From Ceratobasidium sp. AG-K (Eukaryota > Basidiomycota > Agaricomycetes > Cantharellales > Ceratobasidiaceae): a stretch of DNA of 64,000 nt. The translations under genes were made by a program, and so were the position numbers. Every line of letters starts with the position of its first letter. The first letter of the stretch is position 1. Under the pieces are notes generated by a model. That model saw only the letters and a list, made by a program, of their open reading frames with translations, had not been told where the DNA came from and made no database searches. This document shows, piece after piece, positions 14,501 through 15,828 of this stretch. Location of the stretch: assembly GCA_037039685.1 (NCBI GenBank), contig JAWNGF010000003.1, forward strand, positions 5,283,071 through 5,347,070, read 5' to 3'.

Positions 14501-15499
14501 TACCAAGAAGGAGATCTAGTTTGGCTGCTAGGAAAGAACATTCAAACGAAAAGACCATCAAAGAAACTGGATAACAAAAAGCACGGGCCATTTGTTGTGA
14601 AGCGACAGATAGGGTCACACGCTTATGAGCTTGATTTGCCGGCAACAATGAGGGTGCACCCTGTTTTCCACATCGATCTGCTCAGCCCTTACAAGGGAGA
14701 CACTGAATTCAGCCGTAACCAACCCCGACCACCGCCGATCATAACAGAAGAAGGAGAAGAGGAATACGAAGTAGAAAAGATTTTGGACTGGAAGGAAACA
14801 AAGGACGGTCTTTTTTACAGGGTCAGATGGAAAGGTTATGGAAGTGAAGAAGACACGGAACAAAGCGCGGAAGATTTTGGTCACCTTTCTAAGATCATCA
14901 AGGACCTTCTACGCCGACACCCCGAAGCTCCCACGCCATCTAACTACGTTCCAGGAAAGATAAAAGGCAGGAGGAGTGAGACGAGTAGTGTCACTTGCAA
15001 AACTTGCAACTACTCCAATCTTCGCTCCTCACTCTACTCACTAAACCTCCTCTGCTGCCAAAAATGCCTGCCGTCACACGCTCCACCATCGCCAGCAACC
15101 TCACCCGTGTCCTTGACGGACCAGCGTTCGCTACGGCGAGAATCCTTGACGCTGGGGCCGCACTCTACGTCTTCAAAAGGTCCCAACAAAGCTCGGGAAG
15201 AATGCACTTTAGGGCGTCGGACGACGTCCTGCACTCGGACCTGGGAGAATTCCAATGGGTCGGAAAGAAGTGGCCGACACGCATGCAACTCCTACGAAAG
15301 GACATATTTGTCTGCCGAGGGTGCGCAGCTTTCCAGGTCTCCGAGGTTGTCCTTCTCTCCACCCACATGCTTGGGGTGGTTGAATGGGGACAAGAAGGAG
15401 CGTATTCGAGCGAATGGGTACCTGGGTACGACGGAAGGCAGCCGACGCTCCGGCCTAGATGGAACGACGCTTGGGACGCCAACTACGAGAAGGACCTGA
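11561..15499 (+). pseudogene. Pol of A3 with chromodomain and C-terminal extension (one TGA)
   Basis: About 1313 codons in the -1 frame relative to Gag. Order: protease LIDSGAS (near 11697), RT with YIDD near 12620, RNase H ETDASG near 13061, integrase zinc finger (H near 13708, CETC near 13825), catalytic core (VVVDRF, SDRGTTF, then the Glu of ERINQW near 14211), and a chromodomain beginning EVEKILDW near 14767. The only stop is TGA at 12887-12889 in the FYxRF motif. After the chromodomain the frame continues for about 190 codons: first a Cys4 motif CKTC-x15-CCQKC (near 14995-15070), then a Ser/Thr/Arg-rich tail that overlaps ORF3. RT copies the RNA genome, integrase inserts it, and the chromodomain is expected to tether it to methylated-histone chromatin. 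Confidence 0.85.
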
Positions 15500-15828
15500 G
15501 CGACTGGAGGATGGAGAGGGGCAGGTACCAGAAGGAGAAGATCGATTGGGAACCTTACTGGTGGAAGAAGGAGGAGACTGACGTATCGGCATGGAAGGAG
15601 GTAGAGCCCGACGTGCGCCAGTGGGATGGAGAATTTGTGGAGGCCCAGAAGAGGGTTTTGGACTGGGCCAAGGCGGACTGGACGAAGGAGGAGACCTGGG
15701 AGGAATGGGAGAAATTCTCGGACAAACCAGGCAATACCGCCTTCAATCCCATTGACCTGACCTTGGAGGAGGACGAGGGACTGGAGGAGTACATGCTTGC
15801 AAAGGGCAAGGATTGTGGGATCCAGTAG
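15064..15828 (+). CDS. ORF3: unrecognised 254-residue Trp-rich accessory protein
   Basis: Starts at ATG 15064 inside the end of Pol, in its -1 frame, and ends at TAG 15826-15828, 42 nt before the 3' LTR. Visible parts: a conserved N-terminus (MPAVTRST, then DGPAF, ARIL and ALYVFKRSQ), a central CRGC (CxxC) preceded by LLRKDIFV, a SEWVPGY segment, a C-terminal half with many Trp in charged, helix-like context (WW, WEEW, DWAKADW), and an acidic tail NPIDLTLEEDE that looks like a SUMO-interacting motif. No signal peptide or membrane segment is evident, so it is not an obvious envelope protein. The exact length is kept in A2 and A4, and a distant homologue exists in family C. Function unknown. 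It could be expressed by reinitiation, a shorter transcript or frameshifting. Confidence 0.75.
   Translation: MPAVTRSTIASNLTRVLDGPAFATARILDAGAALYVFKRSQQSSGRMHFRASDDVLHSDLGEFQWVGKKWPTRMQLLRKDIFVCRGCAAFQVSEVVLLSTHMLGVVEWGQEGAYSSEWVPGYDGRQPTLRPRWNDAWDANYEKDLSDWRMERGRYQKEKIDWEPYWWKKEETDVSAWKEVEPDVRQWDGEFVEAQKRVLDWAKADWTKEETWEEWEKFSDKPGNTAFNPIDLTLEEDEGLEEYMLAKGKDCGIQ

What the first reader, a model, noticed from the sequence alone, without database searches (positions are those of the whole stretch)
15064..15828. Third gene (ORF3) downstream of the chromodomain in two chromovirus families
Seen: a 254-residue ORF of identical length in A2, A3 and A4 (start also in A1), in the -1 frame of Pol, ending just before the 3' LTR. 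Its landmarks are MPAVTR, a CxxC core (CRGC or CQGC) and a Trp-rich C-terminal half. Family C has a collinear 421-codon relative with MPAV and YTCQGC. Known: Tf1/sushi chromoviruses normally encode only Gag and Pol. Inferred: an accessory factor, perhaps acting on RNA, host chromatin or silencing. The A2 copy is stop-free although its own Gag and Pol carry stops.
Basis: partly seen in the sequence, partly recalled or inferred. Interest (0 to 1): 0.9.

Follow-up and report, generated by a model that had tools for sequence, protein, structure and literature searches.

The report
Hidden third gene in fungal retrotransposons
Several families of a fungal jumping gene carry, besides their two usual genes, a third protein gene lying partly or mostly inside the end of the second one; natural selection keeps it about as strictly as the element's enzymes, but what the protein does is still unknown.

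Summary
The ORF at 15064-15828 is a real gene. In the host genome (53.6 Mb, 17 contigs, unnamed) its protein scored against 149 places (a lower bound). 27 A3-type and 21 A4-type intact copies give dN/dS 0.06 and 0.125; where both can be read in one copy, the integrase-chromodomain part of Pol gives 0.08 and 0.11. Read as Pol, the overlap shows no amino-acid constraint (1.1-2.8). A larger version (about 379 aa, dN/dS 0.18) sits in a further family; a 75-column core links the versions (hhalign E 2.4e-6). The start codon follows a G-poor, nearly ATG-free leader with a purine at -3 in 82 of 82 copies and a TATA-like octamer 95-120 nt upstream in 69 of 82. This suggests a separate 3' mRNA, most likely from an internal promoter. 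In family D, Pol-frame stops are avoided inside the gene. The protein matches no Pfam family, has no membrane segment, and in A ends in a SUMO-binding-like motif (48 of 48; 0 of 22 in C/D). A nuclear accessory role is inferred, not shown. It is not kept better than Pol, so no sign of domestication. AlphaFold models were unusable.

The parts
15064..15828 (+). ORF3, third gene of the element, 254 codons
   Evidence: dN/dS 0.06-0.13; 149 scored places in own genome
15313..15324 (+). CRGC (CxxC) core of ORF3, residues 84-87
   Evidence: C84, G86, C87 invariant in 14 A-type rows; within the stretch shared with the C/D version by hhalign
15748..15774 (+). SUMO-interaction-like motif PIDLTLEED, residues 229-237
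   Evidence: PIDLT in 46 and PINLT in 2 of 48 intact A-type copies, followed by acidic residues; the motif class is recalled, no binding tested
13058..15499 (+). Pol, distal open part: RNase H, integrase, SH3-like, chromodomain, then a tail that overlaps ORF3 from 15064 to 15499
   Evidence: tail unconstrained in amino acids
14765..14899 (+). Chromodomain of Pol
   Evidence: Pfam PF00385, residues 570-614 of window:13058-15499
14959..14966 (+). TATA-like octamer GATAAAAG at -105 from the ORF3 ATG (inferred internal promoter)
   Evidence: 1 mismatch to TATAAAAG; one at -120..-95 in 69 of 82 copies of four lineages against 0-0.6% of other 26-nt windows; motif chosen after looking
14991..14995 (+). 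TCACT, possible initiator about 31 nt after the TATA-like octamer (inferred)
   Evidence: sequence; similar spacing read by eye in C and D
15004..15063 (+). G-poor leader before the ORF3 start
   Evidence: G fraction 0.05-0.07 in -60..-1 in all four lineages; ATG in -110..-1 in 3 of 82 copies, about 61 expected by shuffle
15860..15869 (+). Polypurine tract before the 3' LTR
   Evidence: sequence; a strict pattern for the tract found downstream in 56 of 60 loci
15871..16329 (+). 3' LTR of the element; identical to the 5' LTR at about 9100-9558
   Evidence: 460 of 460 aligned bases identical
17686..18450 (+). ORF3 of a second A-type family member (A4-type here), 254 codons, open
   Evidence: own-genome search
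19119..19883 (-). ORF3 copy of a minus-strand A-type element, 254 codons with one internal stop
1..174 (-). First 58 codons of ORF3 of an A-type element cut by the window edge
29971..30546 (+). ORF3 of family C, cut by a family-B LTR

Best explanation
ORF3 is a genuine third gene of one branch of fungal chromoviruses (Ty3/gypsy elements with an integrase chromodomain; that the host is a fungus is inferred). It starts at its own ATG inside the tail of Pol and runs to just before the polypurine tract. It is most likely translated from its own short 3' mRNA, made from an internal promoter (TATA-like box about 100-120 nt before the ATG, start site near -75 to -85, G-poor leader with almost no upstream ATG). 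The product is a soluble intracellular accessory protein that the element needs about as much as its integrase. Most likely it works in the nucleus on host chromatin, silencing or SUMO-marked proteins, in the manner of a retroviral regulatory gene rather than of an envelope gene. The Pol frame meanwhile runs on without a stop into ORF3 (129 or 145 codons in A, about 300-366 in D), so that Pol carries a long tail whose amino acids are not conserved. Shown: gene status, constraint, presence at many places, leader features, stop avoidance in D. Inferred: the promoter, the separate mRNA, nuclear/SUMO action.
For: Constraint: dN/dS 0.061 (27 of 30 A3-type loci) and 0.125 (21 of 30 A4-type), 0.10 between them; the overlap read as Pol gives 2.8, 1.1 and 2.0. 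In copies with both stretches open (21 and 13 of 30 each) ORF3 gives 0.061/0.121 and Pol 0.081/0.111. D version 0.18 in 12 of 18 loci. Homology of the A and C/D versions: hhalign E 2.4e-6, probability 88.9 over 75 columns. Leader: purine at -3 in 82 of 82, G 5-7%, ATG in -110..-1 in 3 of 82 against about 61 by shuffle. TATA-like octamer at -120..-95 in 69 of 82. Slippery heptamers near the start in a minority only (9 of 30 A3, 1 of 29 A4, 6 of 16 D, 2 of 6 C). No YAG acceptor within 70 nt in 29 of 30 A3 copies. Pol-frame stop avoidance in four D representatives: NTA before a purine 0 of 10 and NTG before A 0 of 26, against 133 of 184 and 59 of 184 for pyrimidine-ending codons; NCA control 56 of 83 before a purine. 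Pol stop at the same codon in 30 of 30 A3 and 29 of 29 A4 copies. No membrane segment in the two proteins tested. SIM-like motif 48 of 48 A-type.
Against: No RNA evidence of any kind. The TATA-like motif was picked after looking and lies in a Lys-rich Pol stretch; by eye it does not align codon for codon between A and C (about 9 nt apart), and 7 of 16 D and 4 of 7 C copies miss it at one mismatch. Synonymous sites of Pol are not clearly depressed there: in D the lowest value lies further upstream. CAG trinucleotides near -85 leave room for a splice acceptor, and YAGs lie within 70 nt in 19 of 29 A4, 12 of 16 D and 6 of 6 C copies. The SIM-like motif is in 0 of 22 C/D proteins. Stop avoidance: in A the NTA and NTG depletion is weaker but still present after the Pol stop (11 of 49 against 223 of 288; 31 of 285 against 61 of 288), and Gly and NCG controls deviate in several sets, so part of it is sequence bias. 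No fold: pLDDT 33 and 35. Copies are related, so counts are not independent.
Confidence: 0.45

Rival explanations
1. ORF3 is real but is expressed from a spliced mRNA that starts in the 5' LTR, like retroviral env.
For: The ATG-poor leader also fits an acceptor at about -110 to -75; CAGs stand there in C and D; YAGs within 70 nt in 19 of 29 A4, 12 of 16 D, 6 of 6 C copies. A paper on bdelloid elements says ORF3s in LTR retrotransposons are typically separate transcriptional units expressed from spliced messages (PMC5408684, passage seen).
Against: In 29 of 30 A3-type copies no YAG lies within 70 nt of the start; the stretch before the further CAGs reads purine-rich by eye; a TATA-like octamer at a narrow distance in 69 of 82.
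Confidence: 0.25
2. ORF3 is made as a Pol-ORF3 fusion by -1 ribosomal frameshifting.
For: ORF3 lies in the -1 frame of Pol and overlaps it; Pol-frame heptamers in about -48..-1 in 9 of 30 A3, 1 of 29 A4, 6 of 16 D and 2 of 6 C copies. A4 copies also share one at -141 (24 of 29).
Against: No heptamer is shared by the lineages. In A4 the ORF3 frame is open for at most 32 codons before the ATG, so -141 is out of reach, and in 17 of 29 copies for only 5-8 codons; in 2 of 6 C copies for one codon. The ATG has a purine at -3 in 82 of 82.
Confidence: 0.07
3. ORF3 is an envelope-like gene, by its position between pol and the 3' LTR.
For: Position, as in some insect and plant elements (PMC7264820, passages).
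Against: No membrane-like segment in the two proteins tested: best 19-residue hydropathy 1.56 (A) and 0.61 (D); C half acidic.
Confidence: 0.03
4. ORF3 is only a by-product: the Pol tail is the selected product and the other frame is open by chance.
For: The Pol frame is kept open over ORF3.
Against: Substitutions fall at ORF3 third positions (22/14/86 and 32/15/82 polymorphic sites at positions 1/2/3); the Pol frame has a ratio above 1; ORF3 stays constrained beyond the Pol stop (codons 147-254: 0.058 and 0.130).
Confidence: 0.01
5. ORF3 is a host gene captured by the elements, or one now kept for the host's benefit.
For: The protein family is otherwise nearly unknown, so an origin by capture cannot be excluded.
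Against: Against domestication: ORF3 hits carry stops more often than Pol hits (16, 10 and 4 of 149). A chromodomain pattern precedes it in 55 of 60 A-type loci and a purine tract follows in 56 of 60. A stand-alone host homologue was not looked for.
Confidence: 0.15

Closest known systems
[quoted passage not shown]
   Same: Position and orientation; conserved in many copies of a family.
   Different: In the passages seen the sense ORFs are env-like, some with membrane segments, and one is expressed by splicing; this one has no membrane segment, overlaps Pol and lies in chromoviruses of what is probably a fungus.
gene23 of maize Grande (PMC7264820 passages; the original paper was seen only as a reference title)
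   Same: Accessory gene in the 3' internal region said to be transcribed from its own promoter and to encode a nuclear protein.
   Different: Grande's gene is antisense; sequence relation was not tested.
ORF3s of bdelloid rotifer LTR elements (PMC5408684, abstract and passages)
   Same: Third ORF after pol, family-specific, several unrelated kinds.
   Different: Types named there are esterase, exonuclease, env-like, coiled-coil and membrane ORFs; ORF3 here matches no Pfam domain above cut-off.
Foamy virus Tas with internal promoter (search listing and starts of abstracts only)
   Same: Proposed logic: a regulatory gene driven by an internal promoter.
   Different: No Pfam match for ORF3 and no direct comparison made; the internal promoter here is inferred from sequence alone.
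Family B chromovirus of the same window (about 30.5-37.4 kb)
   Same: Same distal Pol domains with chromodomain, 42-46% identity to A and C there.
   Different: Pol ends 10 nt before the LTR; no ORF3.

Membership tests
Chromovirus (Ty3/gypsy with integrase chromodomain) | RNase H-integrase order with a C-terminal chromodomain | tested here: met
   Pfam hits RT_RNaseH, Integrase_H2C2, rve, SH3_Tf2-1, Chromo in 13058-15499
Chromovirus (Ty3/gypsy with integrase chromodomain) | Two LTRs and a polypurine tract | tested here: met
   460 of 460 identical LTR bases; purine tract at 15860-15869
Chromovirus, usual coding capacity | Only Gag and Pol | tested here: not met
   A third constrained gene, dN/dS 0.06-0.18
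Sense additional ORF between pol and 3' LTR | ORF in gag-pol orientation conserved in many copies | tested here: met
   149 scored places of 779 candidates, further ones; share of all elements not counted
Envelope-like ORF | Membrane segment(s) | tested here: not met
   Highest 19-mer hydropathy 1.56 (P0001) and 0.61 (L072 protein)
Spumavirus-like internal-promoter regulatory gene | Transcript from an internal promoter | not testable with these tools
   Only sequence signs
Spumavirus-like internal-promoter regulatory gene | Product acts on LTR and internal promoter | not testable with these tools
   No fold or domain; only one 12-nt near-repeat joins LTR and the region before ORF3
SUMO-interacting protein | Hydrophobic core followed by acidic residues | tested here: inconclusive
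   PIDLT/PINLT plus acidic residues in 48 of 48 A-type copies, but 0 of 22 C/D proteins; motif definition recalled
SUMO-interacting protein | Binds SUMO | not testable with these tools
   needs a binding assay

The most novel reading that the evidence does not exclude
A branch of fungal chromoviruses has evolved a complex-retrovirus-like layout: an internal promoter inside pol drives a nested regulatory gene whose product, SUMO-binding in the A types, counters host chromatin silencing, while the pol frame under it is kept open, not for its amino acids, but so that the genomic RNA keeps a short 3' untranslated end (for example to escape nonsense-mediated decay).
Probability: 0.15. Interest if true: 0.88.

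Novelty: new variant of a known kind. Interest (0 to 1): 0.62.

Why it matters
Fungal LTR elements are usually described with two ORFs, Gag and Pol. Here a high-copy group keeps a third protein, not described in the listings I searched, under selection about as strong as that on integrase, so it must matter to the element's spread. The overlap is also unusual: one frame is selected for its amino acids, the other, most clearly in family D, for staying open, which may point to a constraint on where translation of the genomic RNA can end. Both can be tested directly with RNA data and with the single protein.

Tried and rejected
Structure: two AlphaFold2 jobs on shallow alignments (8 and 7 rows) gave pLDDT 33.3 and 35.4; no fold search was run on such models. 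Domains: Pfam none for P0001 and for the A4- and C-type proteins; only sub-threshold hits, coiled-coil models among them, for the 15 rows of the C/D alignment; PHROGs none for P0001 and two weak ones for a D protein; PDB by sequence nothing convincing. Viral contig scans: none. Protein database: 2 hits for P0001, 4 for the alignment (only the 7997 best candidates scored), 1 for the D protein; four different proteins in all.

Rejected: env-like gene (no membrane segment); frameshift fusion (no shared slippery site); chance overlap; better preservation of ORF3 than Pol. Motifs shared by LTR and the region before ORF3: one 12-nt near-repeat only. The bacterial promoter scan is not informative for a eukaryote. 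The Pol comparison was made without gap handling and gave inflated Pol values; one search replaces it. In the codon test the controls are not clean: Gly deviates in the A sets (G-ending before A 7 of 157 in the overlap; A-ending before a purine 23 of 66 after it) and in all 12 D copies (A-ending 27 of 95 against 61 of 125), NCG before A is low in all 12 D copies (7 of 62 against 175 of 729), and NTA/NTG depletion is weaker but present after the Pol stop in A. I therefore rest stop avoidance on family D, where not one of 36 codons at risk makes a stop in the four representatives. In A the synonymous shuffle gave only P 0.03-0.18.

Rows dropped: one search used 27 of 30 and 21 of 30 loci (internal stop or other length); one search used 12 of 18 D-type loci (six incomplete or frame-broken); one search used 59 of 60 A-type, 16 of 18 D, and 6 of 8 fetched C-type loci plus the window copy (L064, L068 without a clean start left out); one search used 8 of 10 C/D loci tried (two gave no start) and 10 of 60 A loci; one search used 34 of 60 loci; one search used 22 C/D proteins.

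Literature. No title or abstract start in these listings described a third gene in a fungal chromovirus; the library lacks most subscription journals. Passages were read in PMC5408684, PMC7264820 and PMC3248453 only.

Full report
What is there. Window 15064-15828 (+) reads as 254 codons, MPAVTR...CRGC...(Trp-rich)...PIDLTLEED...Q, ending 42 nt before the 3' LTR. It lies in the -1 frame of Pol, whose open frame (13058-15499: RNase H, integrase, SH3-like, chromodomain) overlaps it by 436 nt. The element is bounded by LTRs identical over 460 of 460 bases, so it is young, although its Pol carries one in-frame stop near 12887 (open frames of 453 and 869 codons where many copies show 1323).

How common. 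The ORF3 protein scored against 149 places there (779 candidates at first look; only the best are scored, so these are lower bounds), 89-100% identical, 133 of 149 without a stop (my count). The sister protein at 17686-18450 again gave 149 scored places (776 candidates), overlapping in part with the first set. The family-C protein gave 150 (739 candidates), down to 38% identity, among them a large family D whose protein is about 379 residues with a charged C-terminal part that may form a coiled coil (sub-threshold Pfam hits only).

Selection. In 27 A3-type and 21 A4-type intact copies dN/dS is 0.061 and 0.125, and 0.10 between the two types. The same bases read as Pol give 2.8, 1.1 and 2.0. 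Polymorphic sites in the overlap fall 22/14/86 (A3) and 32/15/82 (A4) at ORF3 codon positions 1/2/3 of 128 codons. Where both stretches are open in the same copy, ORF3 (0.061, 0.121) is about as constrained as the 455 Pol codons before it (0.081, 0.111; 21 and 13 copies; between A3 and A4 the synonymous sites of Pol are saturated). In 12 D copies ORF3 has 0.18, the overlap read as Pol 1.34, read in the third frame 1.70. ORF3 is therefore a protein-coding gene of the element, and the Pol tail under it is not conserved as protein.

One family. Profiles of the A version and the C/D version match over 75 columns around W-V-G...C-x-G-C...V-V-L-x-S (hhalign probability 88.9, E 2.4e-6). Beyond that core they differ. 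Neither matches Pfam, PHROGs or the PDB convincingly. Family B of the same window lacks ORF3: its Pol stops 10 nt before its LTR. In the distal Pol part A and C are 53% identical, B 42-46% to either, so presence of ORF3 goes with Pol relatedness in this small comparison.

How it may be expressed. In 82 copies of four lineages (A3 30, A4 29, D 16, C 7) the base at -3 is a purine in all 82; G falls to 5-7% in the last 60 nt; an ATG occurs in the 110 nt before the start in 3 of 82, against about 61 by shuffling. A TATA-like octamer (one mismatch to TATAAAAG) stands at -120 to -95 in 69 of 82 (29 of 30, 28 of 29, 9 of 16, 3 of 7), while 0-0.6% of other 26-nt windows hold one. I chose this motif after seeing the sequences, and Lys codons of Pol favour it. 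Slippery heptamers near the start occur in 9 of 30 A3, 1 of 29 A4, 6 of 16 D and 2 of 6 C copies; an A4-wide one at -141 (24 of 29) lies where the ORF3 frame is closed. Splicing is not excluded: 29 of 30 A3 copies have no YAG in the last 70 nt, but 19 of 29 A4, 12 of 16 D and 6 of 6 C copies do, and CAGs stand near -85. I put an internal promoter at about one half, splicing at about one quarter.

The Pol frame beneath. The Pol stop inside ORF3 is at codon 145 in 30 of 30 A3 copies and 129 in 29 of 29 A4 copies, with an earlier stop in 3 and 1 of them; in D the frame runs 300-366 codons, in some cut by the end of what was fetched. Shuffling synonymous codons of ORF3 gives on average 2.7-6.5 Pol-frame stops in C/D proteins where 0-2 are seen (P of so late a first stop 0-0.006 in 8 loci); in A the effect is weak (P 0.03-0.18 in 10 loci). 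In four D representatives NTA codons stand before a purine in 0 of 10 cases and NTG before A in 0 of 26; pyrimidine-ending NTN codons do so in 133 of 184 and 59 of 184. NCA codons, which could not make stops, stand before a purine in 56 of 83. In A, such stops are nearly absent before the Pol stop (1 of 127, 4 of 212) and more frequent after it (11 of 49, 31 of 285), yet still below pyrimidine-ending codons there (223 of 288, 61 of 288), and Gly controls deviate, so sequence bias accounts for part of it. In D I take it that Pol is kept open through a stretch whose amino acids are dictated by ORF3. One reading, not tested, is that the genomic RNA must not end translation far from its 3' end; another is that Pol needs a long disordered tail.

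What the protein may do. No membrane segment in the two proteins tested, acidic C half, a CxxC core, and in 48 of 48 intact A-type copies PIDLT (46) or PINLT (2) followed by acidic residues, which fits the recalled SUMO-interaction motif; 0 of 22 C/D proteins have it. Two AlphaFold2 models were unusable (pLDDT 33 and 35). My best guess is a nuclear accessory protein acting on chromatin or SUMO-dependent silencing; that part is a hypothesis.

Relatives elsewhere. Four database proteins in all: three JGI metagenome fragments (86 and 72% to the A protein, 63% to D) and a UniRef entry labelled Globodera pallida that joins a chromodomain to the D-type N-terminal part. The label may reflect contamination by a fungus; I did not test this. 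Nothing in viral contigs.

Known background. Additional ORFs between pol and the 3' LTR are known in plants and animals (PMC7264820 and PMC5408684, passages), including one in maize Grande said to have its own promoter. A survey of fungal LTR elements says the order usually encodes two ORFs (PMC3248453, passages). In the listings I saw no third gene in a fungal chromovirus. Hence a new variant of a known kind.

Noticed in passing
   Followed up: yes
window 30547 onward: A family-B LTR interrupts the family-C element inside its ORF3, which gives the false C-terminal tail of the 223-codon frame.
   Followed up: partly
window 9100-16329: An element with LTRs identical over 460 bases has a stop in Pol near 12887 although it inserted recently; it may have moved with proteins from other copies.
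   Followed up: no
window 41047-41631 and 44854-45873: Two ORFs that look like Tc1/mariner-type transposases (by eye, recalled motifs).
   Followed up: no
P0004 (UniRef A0A183CTW7, labelled Globodera pallida): A nematode-labelled entry joins a chromodomain with the N-terminal part of the D-type ORF3; perhaps contamination or a gene-model fusion.
   Followed up: no
own genome, family D (for example L070, L072, L077-L079): The Pol frame stays open for about 350 codons across ORF3, with no NTA codon before a purine and no NTG before A.
   Followed up: yes
own genome: About 1,570 first-look candidates for Pol pieces against about 780 for ORF3 pieces; Pol pieces may also hit families without ORF3, so the share with ORF3 is not known.
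   Followed up: no
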